Assembly (NCBI GenBank): GCA_958295755.1
Contig: OY282367.1
Location: 868,022 to 932,021 of the forward strand
Direction: 5' to 3'
Source: an uncultured Acidimicrobiales bacterium
Lineage (GTDB): Bacteria > Actinomycetota > Acidimicrobiia > Acidimicrobiales > Hopanoidiivorantaceae
DNA length: 64,000 nt
Within the stretch, counting starts at the first letter, position 1; the number at the start of each line of letters is the position of its first letter. A program made the position numbers and the translations under genes. Below the pieces are notes generated by a model, which saw only the letters and a list, made by a program, of their open reading frames with translations, was not told the DNA's origin and did not search any database. This document shows positions 59,436 to 63,903 of the stretch, piece after piece.

Positions 59436-60377
59436 TTATGGGTCGGCTGGTTCGCATTCGTCTTTGGCTGATGAGCAGACGAGTAAATCGTCGTGGGCAA
59501 CATTGACTATCTCACAGACCTCTCGGCCCGGATCGGCTCGTACTTCCCAGTATTCGTCTTCCCATGTGTATTTTGCTAATTCATCTTTATCTGTGATACT
59601 AGTGATACCTATAGCTAGCACGTTGCCAGGATCCGGACCAGCAGATTGCCAATTAGGTTTCACAGCGCGGGGGTATCCCAGATCTGAATCAGCAGTCCCC
59701 GGGTGAGCTCCAACTCCATTACCATGCCAACGAAAACTTATTGTCCCGGGCCCTTCATAATTTTCTCTTTCCCACCTCCCCCAATTACCTCTACCTGTAC
59801 TATGATCTCTACTACTTCCTCTAACATAGGCAACCCCTAATCTGTATTGGTTCTTAGCTGGTGGTCTGTTGTCATCGTAGTAATCCAACTTAGATGGGGC
59901 CGGCCAATGCTCCTTCCCAGTGTTACGCACATTAAGTGGCGTCGGGTAAAAATGATTGCCGTTGGCATTCTTATAACCTGTTACATCCCAGTAGCAGGGT
60001 GCTAGGCAACCTATGTTGCTTGAGGCGACACCGCCGTAGGCTTCTGGCCCGCCGTGGCCTGCGGCTTCAAGGGTAGCCACATGAATTTCCCAAGTCTCGC
60101 ACTTACTCTCTATGCCAATATTGCCAGCTTCTTCAAAGTCGTCGCTAGAGCTGCGGTTGATAGCAACCAGCACCAATGCTGCCCCAACAGCCACCAGCAC
60201 CAACACAGCTGTTACGATAAGCGTCTGAAGCGTAAAGCCTCTCTCGGTGTGGCTCGATTCAGGGCGTAGTCGGGGGGGGGTGCCCTTAGAGCTATGCTCG
60301 CCCCGGGCTAGCCATTTCTTGCTGCTAGCGATACCAAGCTTTGCGGCAGACGATTTTTCAAATTTGGTCAGTGACAT
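59436..60377 (-). CDS. Prepilin-like exported protein, paralogue 1 (phase-variable candidate)
   Basis: A 313-residue protein of unknown function, one of three tandem paralogues. Residues 1-46 are basic and hydrophilic; ERGFTLQTLIVTAVLVLVAV (45-64) begins a class III-like signal: Gly47-Phe48 followed by a 27-residue hydrophobic helix, but Glu at +5 is missing (Thr52). Then a conserved stalk NRSSSDDFEEAGNIGI, an extracytoplasmic domain with six positionally conserved Cys (SKCETWE, GCLAPCYW, REVCEIVN, LLVCSSAKDEC), and a variable centre. The start has an excellent AGGAGG ribosome site. The tract C9 (coding strand) encodes Thr33-Arg36. No pilus or secretion gene lies nearby. Confidence 0.82.
   Translation of the reverse strand: MSLTKFEKSSAAKLGIASSKKWLARGEHSSKGTPPRLRPESSHTERGFTLQTLIVTAVLVLVAVGAALVLVAINRSSSDDFEEAGNIGIESKCETWEIHVATLEAAGHGGPEAYGGVASSNIGCLAPCYWDVTGYKNANGNHFYPTPLNVRNTGKEHWPAPSKLDYYDDNRPPAKNQYRLGVAYVRGSSRDHSTGRGNWGRWERENYEGPGTISFRWHGNGVGAHPGTADSDLGYPRAVKPNWQSAGPDPGNVLAIGITSITDKDELAKYTWEDEYWEVRADPGREVCEIVNVAHDDLLVCSSAKDECEPADP
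60272..60280 (-). repeat. Nine-base homopolymer tract in prepilin-like gene 1
   Basis: G9 on the plus strand (C9 in the coding strand), about 100 bp into the gene and before the membrane segment. The frame is open with nine. Worked by hand, eight Cs lead to TAA after about 20 more codons and ten Cs lead to TGA within a few codons. Such tracts slip during replication and are classical phase-variation switches. Confidence 0.8.
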
Positions 60378-60453
60378 GTTAACCTCCTAGTGACTTGACG
60401 ATATACAAATATGTTATGACAATTATTATAATATAGCAAGTTTTATTTGAGAA
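60378..60453. promoter_or_regulatory. Divergent AT-rich promoter region of prepilin gene 1 and the SDR gene
   Basis: Very AT-rich 76 bp between divergent genes. Plus strand: TATAAT at 60427-60432, suitable as the SDR -10. Minus strand: TTGCTA-N17-TAACAT precedes the prepilin gene. A related but diverged region precedes the third prepilin copy (63694-63780). Confidence 0.4.
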
Positions 60454-61404
60454 GTGCTTTTACGCCAATATCTGCCCTGTGATATGGTGAAATCTATGGA
60501 AACCAAAAAACCTGAACCTGCCAAACCTCAAGGTCTTTCAGAGCCTCCCGAAATCGGCGCATCAGCTCTGCCTGCTGGCACCTACAACGGCCAAGTTGTT
60601 CTAGTTACTGGTGGCGGCAGTGGCCTTGGTAAAGCCATCGCTACTGAATTTGCCCGCCTGGGGGCGAAAGTAGCCGTAGCTAGCCGCAAGCAAGAACATC
60701 TGGATGCAGGGCTTGCTGCTTTGGAAGAAGCAGGCTGTGAAGCTTCCCATGTGGTGGCTTGTGACATCCGCGATGCCGACCAAATCACAGCCGCCTTCAA
60801 TGAGATAGCAGAACATCTGGGCGAAGTTGATGTGCTCATCAACAACGCTGCGGCTAACTTCCCCGTTCCAGCCGAAGAGATGTCGCCGAATGCTTGGCGC
60901 ACTGTAGTAGACATCACCCTCAACGGCACTTTTCTCTGCGCCCGTGAGTTCGCTCGCCGCCACATTGCCGCAGGCACACCAGGTGCCATCGTCAACATCG
61001 GTGCCTCTTATGCTTGGACGGGCGGCCCCGGTTTCGCCCATTCTGCCGCAGCCAAAGCGGGAGTGAAGAATATGACAGAAACTCTGGCGGTGGAATGGAG
61101 CCCTTATGGAATCTCAGTTAACGGGCTAGTCCCGGGGCTGTTCCCGCACGAAGATATGACTGCTGACATCCGCTCTAGTTTGGATCGCACCAACGAGAAA
61201 GACCCTTGCCAGCCCGCTCTGAGAGTCGGGCGGCTACGCGAACTAGGCTGGGCAGCTACCTTTTTAGCCTCGCCTTATGCCCGCTTTATTTCTGGACATA
61301 CCTTGGTGGTAGACGGAGCTAACTGGCAACGCCGCAACCTCACGATGCCCGCAGTTGTTACAGTGCGCGAACAGATGGGCCGCGGGCCGTTTCTAGCCGA
61401 ATAA
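60454..61404 (+). CDS. Short-chain dehydrogenase/reductase, 2,4-dienoyl-CoA reductase-like
   Basis: Rossmann motif VVLVTGGGSGLGKAIATEFA (residues 49-68), NNAAAN, and the active-site region IGASYAWTGGPGFAHSAAAKAG. The classical YxxxK is SAAAK; the Tyr sits earlier (SYAWTG), as in 2,4-dienoyl-CoA reductases, and NGLVPGLFPHEDMT also fits. Probable role: NADPH-dependent reduction in fatty acid oxidation. Start is uncertain: GTG 60454, ATG 60484 or ATG 60496 (METKKPEPAKP, with GGTGA before it). Its 5' end is duplicated at 63781-63903. Confidence 0.88.
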   Translation: MLLRQYLPCDMVKSMETKKPEPAKPQGLSEPPEIGASALPAGTYNGQVVLVTGGGSGLGKAIATEFARLGAKVAVASRKQEHLDAGLAALEEAGCEASHVVACDIRDADQITAAFNEIAEHLGEVDVLINNAAANFPVPAEEMSPNAWRTVVDITLNGTFLCAREFARRHIAAGTPGAIVNIGASYAWTGGPGFAHSAAAKAGVKNMTETLAVEWSPYGISVNGLVPGLFPHEDMTADIRSSLDRTNEKDPCQPALRVGRLRELGWAATFLASPYARFISGHTLVVDGANWQRRNLTMPAVVTVREQMGRGPFLAE

Positions 61405-61484
61405 AAGATCTAGGTATCGCCAAAAGGCAGGCCACGATTTTCTGGATTTACGAAGTATCACTTTTCCTCTTCGGACTTCGCGCC

Positions 61485-61560
61485 GCTAGCGACACCGGCT
61501 AGAATAGGGTGGGGATGTGAATGCTAAGTAGTGTATTCGCATTCGTCTTTGGCTGAGGAG
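61485..61560. repeat. Downstream flank shared with prepilin gene 3 (copy A)
   Basis: The stretch from CGCTAGCGACACCGGCT through the stop codon of prepilin gene 2 is nearly identical to 62676-62755 after gene 3. The shared part includes non-coding sequence, so it reflects a DNA-level duplication and not only protein constraint. Confidence 0.7.
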
Positions 61561-62501
61561 CAGACGAGCAAATCGTCATTGGCAACATTTACTATTTCGC
61601 AGACTTCTCGACCTGGATCAGCGCGCACTTCCCATGATTCGTCTTCCCATGAGTATCTTTTCTGCTCGTCGGCATCTGGTCGGGTTGTGTAACCTGTGGC
61701 GACTACATTGCCGGGATCTGGACCATAAGAGAACCAGTTAGGTTTCACAACGGTGGGTATCGAATTCGTTATGTCCGACTGAGTCAAAGGTGTCCCAGGT
61801 TTCAAAATTTCAAAGGTTTTCCGTCTAATAACCCACTCTCCTTCTTTCGGGGGATCTGAAAGTCCATTACGCCCTGGCGCATGATCCTTATCAGTTCCTC
61901 TCTTGTAAACAACTCCTAACCGCACTTGGTCAGCGATTGGGGCTCTGTTGTCATCGTAATAAAGCAACTTAGATGTAAATGGCCAACGATCATTTCCCAT
62001 TGCGTCAGACGGCGTCTTCACATTTCGCACAAAATACGGCCCCGGAAAAAACTGCTCAGTATAAAAATGCCCTGATGGGGTTTGGACACGATCACGAGGT
62101 AACTCCCAGTAGCAGGGTGCTAGGCAGCCTATGTTGCTTGAGAAAACACCGCCGTAGCCTTCTGGCCCGCCGTGACCTGCGGCTTCAAGCGTCGCCAAGT
62201 GAATTTCCCAAGTCTGGCACTTACCTTCTATGCCAATATTGCCAGCCTCTTCAAAATCATCACTTGAGCTACGGTTGATAGCAACCAGCACCACTGCTGC
62301 TCCAACGGCCACCAGCACCAGCACAGCTGTTACGATAAGCGTCTGAAGGGTAATACCTCTCTCGGTTTGCTTTAATCTAGCACCCCCCCCCGCAGTAACG
62401 CGTGAACTTACCTCGCCTGCCTCACTACTACTTGCGCCTATCAACACAGATGACAATCTTGACCCAGATACCACCAATCTTCCAAACTTACGAAATACCA
62501 T
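61524..62501 (-). CDS. Prepilin-like exported protein, paralogue 2 (phase-variable candidate)
   Basis: A 325-residue paralogue of 59436-60377. I use the ATG at 62501 with AGGAG 7 bp before it; an ATG at 62582 in the same frame would add 27 residues without support. The first 48 residues differ from the other copies (Ser/Gly/Val-rich), then TERGITLQTLIVTAVLV onward matches closely, including stalk, Cys pattern and a C-terminal WEVRADPGREVCEIVN. The tract is G9 in the coding strand, encoding Ala37-Gly40, at the same place as C9 in the others but of opposite base. Function unknown. Confidence 0.8.
   Translation of the reverse strand: MVFRKFGRLVVSGSRLSSVLIGASSSEAGEVSSRVTAGGGARLKQTERGITLQTLIVTAVLVLVAVGAAVVLVAINRSSSDDFEEAGNIGIEGKCQTWEIHLATLEAAGHGGPEGYGGVFSSNIGCLAPCYWELPRDRVQTPSGHFYTEQFFPGPYFVRNVKTPSDAMGNDRWPFTSKLLYYDDNRAPIADQVRLGVVYKRGTDKDHAPGRNGLSDPPKEGEWVIRRKTFEILKPGTPLTQSDITNSIPTVVKPNWFSYGPDPGNVVATGYTTRPDADEQKRYSWEDESWEVRADPGREVCEIVNVANDDLLVCSSAKDECEYTT
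62383..62391 (-). repeat. Nine-base homopolymer tract in prepilin-like gene 2
   Basis: C9 on the plus strand (G9 in the coding strand), within codons 37-41, just before the hydrophobic segment. The base is the complement of that in copies 1 and 3, so this tract arose independently or by inversion, which argues for selection. Confidence 0.8.
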
Positions 62502-62675
62502 AACAGAACTCCTCTTTGTCTTGTGGCTGCAGCCTTCTAGCTGTAGCCCTCTAACAAAGCATATTACAACATTATCATACAATATAGCACTGGTGGCATT
62601 CCTGGGAGTATTGGGTTAGCTAACCCGCAAGCTACTAGACAGCTATGACCTCAAGCTAAACAGCTTCGGACCTCG

Positions 62676-62755
62676 CGTCGCTAGCGACACCGGCTAAAAT
62701 AGGGCGGGGATGTGAATGCTAAGTAGTGTATTCGCATTTTTCTTTTGCTGATGAG
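62676..62755. repeat. Downstream flank shared with prepilin gene 2 (copy B)
   Basis: Second copy of the flank at 61485-61560; it differs at only a few positions and includes the gene 3 stop codon. The gap 62502-62718 upstream of gene 2 holds only this flank and AT-rich sequence; no gene seen. Confidence 0.7.
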
Positions 62756-63693
62756 CAGACGAGCAAATCGTCATTGGCAACATTTACTATCTCGCAGACT
62801 TCTCGACCCGGATCAGCCCGCACTTCCCAGGATTCGTCTTCCCATGAGTATCTTTTCTGCGCACCGGCGGGATCTGGTCGCGCTGTGTAACCTGTGGCGA
62901 CTACGTTGCCGGGATCTGGACCATAAGAGAACCAGTTAGGTTTCACAACGGTGGGTATCGGTCTCGCTATCTGAGCCTGAGTCAAAGGTCTCCCAGGTGT
63001 ATTCATGTCAGGGGTACGCCATCTAATAACCCACTCTCCTTCTTTCGGGGGAGTTGCAAGTCCATTTCTCGCTCGCTTATGATCCTGTTCACTTCCTCCT
63101 CTATTGTAAACAACTCCCAACCGTACTTGGTAAGCGATTGGGGCTCTGTTGTCATCGTAATAAAGCAACTTAGATATAAATGGCCAACGTTCATTATTAG
63201 GTGCGCTAGACGGCGTGTTCACATTTCGCACAAAATACGGCCCCGGCCACCACTGCTCAGTATAAAAAGAGTGTGATACTCTTGTGTCAACACGAGATAA
63301 CTCCCAGTAACAGGTGGCTAGGCAACCTATGTTGCTTGAGAAAACACCGCCGTGGCCTTCTGGTCCTCCGTGGCCTGCGGCTTCAAGCGTCGCTAAATGG
63401 ATTTCCCAAGTCTCGCACTTACCTTCAATGCCGATGTTACCAGCTTCTTCAAAATCGTCACTTGAGCTACGGTTGATAGCAACCAGCACCACTGCTGCCC
63501 CAACAGCCACCAGCACTAACACAGCTGTTACGATAAGCGTCTGAAGGGTAATACCTCTCTCGGTGTGGCTCGATTCAGAGCGTAGTCGGGGGGGGGTGCC
63601 CTTAGAGCTATGCTCGCCCCGGGCTATCCACTTCTTAGCACTAGAGTTGACAAGCTTCGCGATAGGCGATTTTTCAAATTTTTGCAATAGCAT
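62719..63693 (-). CDS. Prepilin-like exported protein, paralogue 3 (phase-variable candidate)
   Basis: A 324-residue mosaic. Residues 1-46 match paralogue 1 (KFEKS, AKKWIARGEHSSKGTPPRLRSESSHTERG region, with the same C9 tract), while the extracytoplasmic domain matches paralogue 2 (FYTEQ, GPYFVRNV, WPFISKLLYYDDNRAPIA, KEGEWVIR, VVKPNWFSYGPDPGNVVATGYT). Signal junction Gly47-Ile48; six conserved Cys, with the last in KEKCEYTT. The ATG at 63693 has AAGGAG 6 bp before it. Function unknown. Confidence 0.82.
   Translation of the reverse strand: MLLQKFEKSPIAKLVNSSAKKWIARGEHSSKGTPPRLRSESSHTERGITLQTLIVTAVLVLVAVGAAVVLVAINRSSSDDFEEAGNIGIEGKCETWEIHLATLEAAGHGGPEGHGGVFSSNIGCLATCYWELSRVDTRVSHSFYTEQWWPGPYFVRNVNTPSSAPNNERWPFISKLLYYDDNRAPIAYQVRLGVVYNRGGSEQDHKRARNGLATPPKEGEWVIRWRTPDMNTPGRPLTQAQIARPIPTVVKPNWFSYGPDPGNVVATGYTARPDPAGAQKRYSWEDESWEVRADPGREVCEIVNVANDDLLVCSSAKEKCEYTT
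63588..63596 (-). repeat. Nine-base homopolymer tract in prepilin-like gene 3
   Basis: G9 on the plus strand (C9 in the coding strand) at the same codons (33-36) as in paralogue 1. The frame is open with nine bases. Confidence 0.8.
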
Positions 63694-63780
63694 GATGATC
63701 TCCTTATAGACTATTGATACAACATTTATAGTAACAAACTATAGCAACTAGTTTATTATATTGCAAGTTTATCTTTAGCA

Positions 63781-63903
63781 ATGCTTTTACGCCAATATCT
63801 GCCCTGTGATATGGTGAAATCTATGGAAACCCAAAAATCTGAACCTGCCAAACCTCAAGGTCTTTCAGAACCACCCGCAATCGGCGCATCATCTCTTCCA
63901 TAA
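63781..63903 (+). pseudogene. Duplicated 5' fragment of the SDR gene
   Basis: Forty codons (ATG to TAA) nearly identical to the first 40 codons of the SDR gene at 60454: MVKSMETQKSEPAKPQGLSE and so on, differing at about four residues, then stopping at the point where the SDR core would begin. It is the divergent neighbour of prepilin gene 3, as the full SDR gene is of prepilin gene 1. It is thus the end of a segmental duplication and cannot encode an enzyme. Confidence 0.85.

What the first reader, a model, noticed from the sequence alone, without database searches (positions are those of the whole stretch)
59436..63693. Three tandem exported paralogues each carry a nine-base G/C tract: likely phase-variable locus
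All three prepilin-like genes have exactly nine identical bases (60272-60280, 62383-62391, 63588-63596) in the 5' coding region, just before the membrane segment. In gene 1 a change of one base either way stops translation before the membrane helix is made. No other run this long was noticed in the window. Gene 2 has G9 where genes 1 and 3 have C9 on the coding strand, so the feature recurred independently. Phase variation by poly-G/C slippage is known in Neisseria, Campylobacter and Helicobacter; I know of no well-described case in this kind of actinobacterium.
Basis: partly seen in the sequence, partly recalled or inferred. Interest (0 to 1): 0.87.

Follow-up and report, generated by a model that had tools for sequence, protein, structure and literature searches.

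The report
Genome-wide G/C-tract gene switches, actinobacterium
An actinobacterium, likely uncultured, carries 62 runs of nine or more Gs or Cs, many of them just before or inside genes for predicted surface proteins and DNA-modifying enzymes, where gaining or losing one base would cut the protein short, so the bacterium likely switches these genes on and off at random.

Summary
In detail: the only homopolymers of 8 or more in the window are the three 9-mers, and one base more or less would end all three products before the helix. They belong to something larger. The 2.29-Mb genome has 62 G/C runs of 9 or more, with a dip at length 8 (7-runs 33 outside a CRISPR-like array, 8-runs 7, 9-runs 32, 10-runs 18). 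A second genome of the genus, Ca. Hopanoidivorans cymbastelae (Acidimicrobiales), has 67. In both, tract genes include prepilin-like, leucine-rich-repeat and DNA methyltransferase/restriction genes. Paralogues occur in frame and broken at the tract, with the downstream frame intact. New here: 60 of 62 tracts have their Gs on the leading strand (59 of 62 with the terminus set independently of the tracts), whichever strand the gene is on; 7-8-base runs do not (14 or 15 of 40). The window holds the point opposite dnaA. Best reading: slipped-strand phase variation, strongly inferred; no read-level proof was possible. G-tract switches are known in other actinobacteria; the lineage and the replication polarity look new.

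The parts
59436..60377 (-). gene 1, prepilin-like protein, 313 aa, in frame (ON) with C9
60272..60280 (-). gene 1 tract, C9 on the coding strand (G9 on +)
60159..60239 (-). gene 1 prepilin-like Gly plus hydrophobic helix (GFTLQTLIVTAVLVLVA...)
60382..60388 (-). Shine-Dalgarno-like AGGAGGT of gene 1, upstream of the start and the tract
61524..62501 (-). gene 2, paralogue, 325 aa from ATG, in frame (ON) with G9
62383..62391 (-). gene 2 tract, G9 on the coding strand (C9 on +); different base from genes 1/3 and one of the two polarity exceptions when the terminus is put at 932,500
62277..62357 (-). gene 2 prepilin-like Gly plus helix
62509..62513 (-). Shine-Dalgarno-like AGGAG of gene 2
62719..63693 (-). 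gene 3, paralogue, 324 aa, in frame (ON) with C9; mosaic of a gene 1-like 5' part and a gene 2-like body
63588..63596 (-). gene 3 tract, C9 on the coding strand, in the gene 1-like 5' part
63475..63555 (-). gene 3 prepilin-like Gly plus helix
63700..63704 (-). Shine-Dalgarno-like AGGAG of gene 3

Best explanation
The three nine-base tracts lie between the start codon and the predicted membrane helix of three prepilin-like genes and are likely slippage-prone ON/OFF switches, part of a genome-wide set of 62 long G/C tracts that would phase-vary predicted surface proteins and DNA-modification enzymes. Shown: in the assembly the three genes are in frame at nine bases, and eight or ten bases would end translation before the helix. 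Shown: this genome and a second one of the genus carry related genes in frame and related genes broken at the tract with the rest of the frame intact. Inferred: during replication the tract gains or loses a base, most readily when its Gs are on the leading strand; as no MutS match was found, such slips may escape MutS-type repair. Inferred: each cell then shows a different mix of the paralogues and a different set of active DNA methyltransferases. A minority of tracts lie at the ribosome-binding site or its spacer and may tune expression instead.
For: Length distribution with a dip at 8: 7-runs 33 outside a CRISPR-like array, 8-runs 7, 9:32, 10:18, 11:8, 12-14:4. Of the 62 tracts, 36 lie in an ORF of at least 140 aa with a start upstream, 13 directly 5' of such a frame without an in-frame start, 13 elsewhere. 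Prepilin family in G000: 8 close copies with the tract before the helix, 7 in frame, 1 not (937353), plus a more distant copy (1406993) broken. G001: 12 copies with a tract of 9 or more before the helix; by the frame of the upstream leader 4 in frame, 6 broken, 2 ambiguous; with the same 136-nt leader G10 is in frame (C58:34367) and G9 is not (C36:18692, C36:19843, C21:8472). Seven further G001 copies have the tract mid-gene; 6 open, 1 broken. A 20,107-codon frame has a signal-peptide-like stretch in another frame, the break being at a G10 tract; LRR gene 417872 is broken the same way. Downstream frames stay constrained: dN/dS 0.28-0.51 in 11 pairs, 8 of which include an OFF copy. Of 33 non-prepilin proteins scanned in G000 (one, L063, at an 8-base run), 13 match LRR models (one below its cut-off), 8 DNA modification/restriction, 2 RCC1; of 25 in G001, 10 modification/restriction, 3 LRR. 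N6_Mtase gives 8 matches in G000, 7 frames if two neighbours in equal-length frames are one; 4 of the 7 carry a tract. No MutS_V match in 3 of 3 genomes, 11 of 14 controls positive. Gs on the leading strand in 60 of 62 tracts against 14 of 40 7-8-base runs, p=5e-12; with the terminus at dnaA's antipode, 59 of 62 against 15 of 40, p=2e-10. Collapsed to clusters, 35 of 36 uniform clusters fit, shuffled maximum 31. Gene strand is unrelated to tract base (14/14/12/9).
Against: No reads, no strains: tract length was never seen to vary at one locus. All three window tracts are nine bases and ON. The OFF copy 937353 is a mosaic (500 nt upstream 99.8% like 935511, 250 nt downstream 98.4% like 939623), so recombination rather than slippage may have set its frame. 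Equal tract lengths with different frames in G001 (C48 and C36, all G9) show that other changes also move the frame. ON was scored for any ATG/GTG/TTG start in frame upstream; copy 933669's start is not backed by its relatives' start, whose frame meets a stop there. Leader dN/dS in G001 is not below 1 in several pairs. Some tracts lie by housekeeping genes (PEP carboxykinase, ribonucleotide reductase, thiolase, peptidyl-tRNA hydrolase, aldehyde dehydrogenase) and one is a spacer of the CRISPR-like array. Such runs are not special to the genus: 49 of 59 genomes searched (own included) have a 9-mer and four of the same order (G036, G037, G048, G057) have more 9-mer positions than G000's 113; their context was not examined. 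In P. acnes similar tracts follow clades and change slowly (abstract passage). MutS absence rests on genomes 83-90% complete; the actinobacterial NucS was not looked for.
Confidence: 0.85

Rival explanations
1. Recoding at the RNA level: RNA polymerase or ribosome slips on the tract, so every cell makes both products and no DNA switch is needed.
For: Homopolymer runs are slippery for polymerases (recalled); frames broken at the tract are kept intact downstream.
Against: Replication-strand polarity (60 of 62) has no reason to exist for an RNA process, since it ignores gene strand.
Confidence: 0.12
2. Neutral product: a replication-strand mutation bias grows G tracts everywhere, and they survive only in dispensable genes; nothing is switched usefully.
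For: The polarity itself is what a mutational process would leave; 13 of 62 tracts are not tied to a long ORF; some tracts flank housekeeping genes; other genomes of the order have many 9-mers too.
Against: 49 of 62 are in or directly 5' of long ORFs; gene classes repeat in two genomes; OFF frames stay under constraint; the pre-helix site after a similar membrane leader holds C10 in G000 (1406993) and G9/G10 in G001.
Confidence: 0.1
3. The tract and its flank are chiefly a recombination junction at which leaders and bodies of paralogues are swapped.
For: 935511/937353 share 500 nt upstream at 99.8% and diverge within 4 nt after the tract; 933669/935511 share 900 nt downstream at 100% but only 58.7% over 500 nt upstream; gene 3 is a mosaic of genes 1 and 2.
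Against: Does not explain methyltransferase genes with tracts or the length class; the 933/935 swap ends some 40-50 nt upstream of the tract (by eye).
Confidence: 0.15
4. Sequencing or assembly artefact in homopolymers.
For: Long-read homopolymer errors are common (recalled); the platform of this assembly is unknown.
Against: Errors would not follow replication direction or skip length 8; a separate, fragmented assembly (90 contigs) shows the same class.
Confidence: 0.02

Closest known systems
Sortase-dependent pilus G-tract switch of Bifidobacterium breve (PMC9187656; abstract, outline and passages seen)
   Same: Actinobacterium; intragenic G tract in surface-filament genes; ON/OFF by replication slippage
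   Different: Two sortase-dependent pilus clusters; here prepilin-like genes without LPXTG, and a genome-wide set that includes DNA methyltransferases
Long homopolymer tracts of Gardnerella (PMC11287997; passages and section 11 seen)
   Same: Actinobacterium; many tracts of 8 or more; surface proteins and methyltransferases among the genes; lengths 9 and 10 seen between colonies
   Different: Median 20 G/C tracts, about 70% of them upstream of ORFs and about a quarter within; here 69 of 8 or more, with 36 of the 62 of 9 or more inside an ORF; no strand polarity mentioned in the parts read
Homopolymeric tracts of Propionibacterium acnes (PMC4746626; passages and section 17 seen)
   Same: Actinobacterium; 54 polymorphic tracts, 96% G/C
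   Different: 72% intergenic; lengths follow clades, slow change
Campylobacter / Neisseria / Helicobacter contingency loci and phasevarions (PMC4965091, PMC5084427, PMC4209511; search listings only)
   Same: Genome-wide tracts in surface and methyltransferase genes
   Different: Unrelated phyla, pathogens; by the listing C. jejuni NCTC11168 has 29 loci with tracts of 7 or more
Homopolymeric tracts as a general 5' off-switch in prokaryotes (PMC2831843; abstract and outline seen)
   Same: Tracts placed near the 5' end of genes, where a frameshift stops the product
   Different: Poly(A)/poly(T) over 99 genomes; here G/C only

Membership tests
Homopolymeric-tract contingency (phase-variable) loci | Tracts longer and more numerous than composition gives | tested here: met
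   62 of 9 or more with a dip at 8; 15, 18 and 21 in three Markov simulations
Homopolymeric-tract contingency (phase-variable) loci | A one-base change abolishes the product | tested here: met
   all three window genes, in silico
Homopolymeric-tract contingency (phase-variable) loci | In-frame and broken versions exist among homologues | tested here: met
   paralogues, not alleles
Homopolymeric-tract contingency (phase-variable) loci | Tract length varies between cells or strains at one locus | not testable with these tools
   no reads, no second strain of either genome
Homopolymeric-tract contingency (phase-variable) loci | Reversible switching of a phenotype | not testable with these tools
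   no culture
Type IV prepilin-like proteins | Gly before a hydrophobic N-terminal helix (G-F/I-T-L) | tested here: met
   Gly, Thr and Leu invariant across 8 copies
Type IV prepilin-like proteins | Glu at +5 of the mature protein | tested here: not met
   Thr at that place in all 8; that Glu5 is typical is recalled
Type IV prepilin-like proteins | Match to a pilin family model | tested here: inconclusive
   PilX_N E=0.13, 12.7 bits against cut-off 25.5, gene 3 only of three
Type IV prepilin-like proteins | Prepilin peptidase in the genome | tested here: met
   PF01478 above cut-off in 3 of 3 genomes
Phasevarion | DNA methyltransferase gene with a long tract in its frame | tested here: met
   C14 in an N6_N4_Mtase gene and C14 in a C5 methyltransferase gene
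Phasevarion | Regulon changes with methylation state | not testable with these tools
   no expression data
Sortase pilus switch | LPXTG sorting signal | tested here: not met
   absent from the three window proteins, by reading

The most novel reading that the evidence does not exclude
Contingency tracts in this lineage obey a replication rule: a G/C tract is born or kept only where its Gs lie on the leading strand, so the direction of the replication fork, not the gene, decides whether a switch reads poly-Gly or poly-Pro; genes near the terminus, such as the array in this window, are where both kinds meet.
Probability: 0.55. Interest if true: 0.82.

Novelty: new variant of a known kind. Interest (0 to 1): 0.75.

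Why it matters
It would extend tract-based phase variation, best known from pathogens, to a lineage of Acidimicrobiia whose named relative is likely a sponge symbiont (inferred from its species name), with methyltransferases and very large predicted surface proteins under the same kind of switch. The near-perfect replication polarity offers a direct way to ask how slippage depends on leading or lagging strand synthesis, and gives a simple sequence test that could separate slippage-born tracts from chance runs in closed genomes.

Tried and rejected
Rejected: three independent origins (gene 3's 5' part matches gene 1's). Rejected: chance in a GC-rich window (GC is 0.51). Rejected: polarity as plain GC skew (skew of the held stretches runs from -0.13 to +0.22, with both signs inside one replichore; 7-8-base runs do not follow the rule). 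Rejected: the tract as selection for Gly or Pro, since both occur.

Led nowhere: structure of gene 3 from 8 sequences (mean pLDDT 30), so no fold search was made; gene 3 alone against named genomes (no relative); Pfam on the three window proteins (one weak match); a 65-sequence alignment for a better model (never folded). Searches for strand polarity of phase-variable tracts in print found none that states it: 0 papers; 8 of 8 listed; 15 of 168 listed; two papers were checked by passages.

Caveats on counts: one search used an origin guessed from the tracts (59 of 62); one search repeats it with the origin at dnaA. In one search the terminus at 932,500 was chosen from the tracts; the antipode (889,952) is independent of them. 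One of the 62 tracts (52107) is a spacer of the CRISPR-like array and was kept. The 33 7-runs leave out 44 in that array. Counts are 9-mer positions, not tracts. The ON/OFF tally of G001 leaves out one copy with a G7 run (C62). Pfam scans left out LRR copy 413176, the prepilin-like copies outside the window, several ORFs of 140-190 aa in both genomes and shorter ones. Of 284 homologous proteins (120 listed), 24 were read; P0018 and P0019 also begin inside the helix but lie on contigs under 1 kb and were not counted; DNA of these homologues was not seen, so a contig end cannot be excluded for the counted ones either. G002 was searched for the family (9 weak helix matches, best E 1e-5) but its tracts were not examined.
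Full report
What is there. The three 9-base runs are real and are the only homopolymers of 8 or more in the window. Each lies inside the translated part of its gene: the three genes have a Shine-Dalgarno-like site and a start codon upstream of the tract, and a prepilin-like Gly plus hydrophobic helix 25-32 nt downstream of it. Eight or ten bases instead of nine would give peptides of 39-54 aa without the helix in all three genes. In the assembly all three are ON. Gene 3 is a mosaic: its 5' part, tract and flank match gene 1, its body matches gene 2.

The locus is larger than the window. The window is bases 868,022-932,021 of a 2.29-Mb single-contig genome; eight close paralogues lie at 927-960 kb, five of them outside the window, and weaker matches elsewhere (14 matches in all). 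All eight carry a tract before the helix.

The tract class is genome-wide. The flanks fetched around the listed runs give 69 runs of 8 or more, with lengths 8:7, 9:32, 10:18, 11:8, 12:1, 13:1, 14:2. Seven-base runs number 77, of which 44 are repeats of one CRISPR-like array, leaving 33. So counts fall from 33 to 7 and rise again to 32: runs of 9 or more are a separate class. Three Markov simulations gave 15, 18 and 21 runs of 9 or more, but also 48-54 8-runs, because the array inflated their training. Long A/T runs are not part of it (the longest in 385 kb held is one of 9). Of 62 tracts of 9 or more, 36 lie in an ORF of at least 140 aa with a start upstream (20 of them within 210 nt of the first start), 13 directly 5' of such a frame, 13 elsewhere. 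Among 59 genomes of the order (own included), 49 have a 9-mer and 10 none; G000 has 113 and G001 99 9-mer positions, but G036, G037, G048 and G057 have more; their tracts were not examined, so the genus is not shown to be special in number.

Which genes. Pfam scans covered 33 non-prepilin proteins of G000 and 25 of G001. G000: 13 leucine-rich-repeat (one below its cut-off), 8 DNA modification or restriction (two type ISP enzymes, HsdS, HsdM, an N6 and an N4/N6 methyltransferase, a C5 methyltransferase, a DUF1156 protein with weak methyltransferase matches), 2 RCC1-repeat, 2 without family, 8 others including PEP carboxykinase, ribonucleotide reductase and a thiolase. G001: 10 modification or restriction, 3 LRR, 6 without family, 6 others. 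Four of the 7 N6_Mtase frames found in G000 carry a tract.

ON and OFF. In G000, prepilin copy 937353 (C9) is out of frame and 939623 (C10), with nearly the same 250 nt after the tract, is in frame; since 937353 is a mosaic, its state may come from recombination. In G001, which has 36 matches to gene 3, a conserved membrane leader precedes the tract in most copies with a pre-helix tract; with the same 136-nt leader, G10 is in frame (C58:34367) and G9 is not (C36:18692, C36:19843, C21:8472). Two in-frame copies (C48) carry A plus G9 where C58 has G10, so point changes at the tract edge also set the frame. Outside this family, LRR gene 417872 has its signal-peptide-like part in one frame and its body in another, the break being at the C10 tract, and a 20,107-codon frame has a signal-peptide-like stretch in another frame, ending at a G10 tract. 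Downstream frames stay open and constrained (dN/dS 0.28-0.51 over 11 pairs, 8 with an OFF copy); the short leaders are less clear, several pairs having dN at or above dS. Of 24 homologous proteins read (of 284 found), six from metagenomes keep GGG or PPP before the helix (P0005-P0008, P0011, P0012), while five (P0010, P0014-P0017) begin inside the helix, as does the gene call for the OFF copy of this genome (P0009); gene finders do this when no upstream start is in frame, but their DNA was not seen.

Other tract positions. Some tracts are not simple frame switches: G tracts 3-5 nt before an ATG (166288, ahead of a 14,266-aa frame; 400674 and 403012), and C10 between AGGAGGA and GTG (410779, 413176). 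These may tune translation start. The pair 400674 (G10) and 403012 (G9) also shows a similar upstream leader in frame and out of frame.

Replication polarity. dnaA lies at 2,036,042. With the origin there and the terminus near 932,500, 60 of 62 tracts have Gs on the leading strand; the exceptions are gene 2 of the window and 1973659. With the terminus set as dnaA's antipode, 889,952, inside the window, it is 59 of 62 (then genes 1 and 3 of the window and 1973659 are the exceptions). Runs of 7-8 give 14 or 15 of 40 (p=5e-12 and 2e-10). In one search the best two-breakpoint fit is 60 of 62, and 2000 shuffles reach at most 49; with tracts closer than 6 kb collapsed, 35 of 36 uniform clusters fit (one mixed cluster, that of this window, left out), shuffled maximum 31. 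Gene strand does not matter: 14, 14, 12 and 9 in the four classes. In G001, 49 of 52 tracts on the 16 contigs with two or more share the majority direction of their contig, shuffled maximum 44. GC skew is weak and mixed. The simplest reading, inferred, is that growth of the tract by slippage depends on strand; this would also explain why genes read G or C at equivalent sites.

Organism. G001 is the MAG Candidatus Hopanoidivorans cymbastelae: contig lengths agree with JAPYNY01 records; Acidimicrobiales. The window's genome is of the same genus by the tool's grouping. That the host is a sponge is inferred from the species name. No MutS_V match was found in G000, G001 or G002 (83-90% complete); lack of MutS is usual in actinobacteria (recalled), and NucS was not searched. 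In named genomes the family was found in this MAG only, with the patterns used (19 loci of 46 stretches; none with gene 3 alone).

Against known cases. Actinobacterial G-tract switching or variation is in print for B. breve sortase pili (PMC9187656: abstract, outline and passages), Gardnerella (PMC11287997: passages and one section) and P. acnes (PMC4746626: passages and one section). A search for phase variation with Acidimicrobiia gave 2 papers, neither about it by title or abstract start; Hopanoidivorans gave 0; sponge-symbiont terms gave nothing relevant among those listed (20 of 229; 15 of 23). One review passage says G tracts cause substitutions more often on the leading strand (PMC10710837), a related but different effect.

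Verdict. The finding stands and is part of something bigger. Phase variation is strongly inferred, not shown; the polarity is shown in the sequence of one closed genome and supported within contigs of a second.

Noticed in passing
G000:C1:782182-842503 (L201-L204): An open frame of 20,107 codons from its first start codon, with LRR matches, and a signal-peptide-like stretch in another frame ending at a G10 tract; other frames with LRR matches of 14,266, 8,809, 6,868, 6,001 and 5,763 aa were listed.
   Followed up: partly
G000:C1:50422-53534 (L050): CRISPR-like array: 44 copies of a repeat with C7, spaced 70-75 nt; one spacer (52107) holds a G10 run.
   Followed up: partly
L045, 933669-939623 in G000: Paralogues swap 5' and 3' parts with breakpoints at the tract or some 40-50 nt from it, e.g. 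99.8% identity over 500 nt before the tract and 82.4% over 250 nt after it.
   Followed up: partly
window 60454-61404 and about 63780-63899: A gene that looks by eye like a short-chain dehydrogenase, divergent from gene 1, and a truncated copy of its start beside gene 3, part of the same duplication.
   Followed up: no
L056 and L068 (G000 285213-285903, 1094620-1095048): Type ISP restriction enzymes with several tracts in and after the C-terminal specificity region, and repeated cassettes by eye in L056; one-base changes would swap C-termini.
   Followed up: no
G000:C1:1406814 (L047): A C10 run inside what looks by eye like an intrinsic terminator hairpin.
   Followed up: no
L059, 410779 and 413176: C10 exactly between AGGAGGA and a GTG start in two near-identical LRR genes: the tract would set the ribosome-site spacing.
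   Followed up: no
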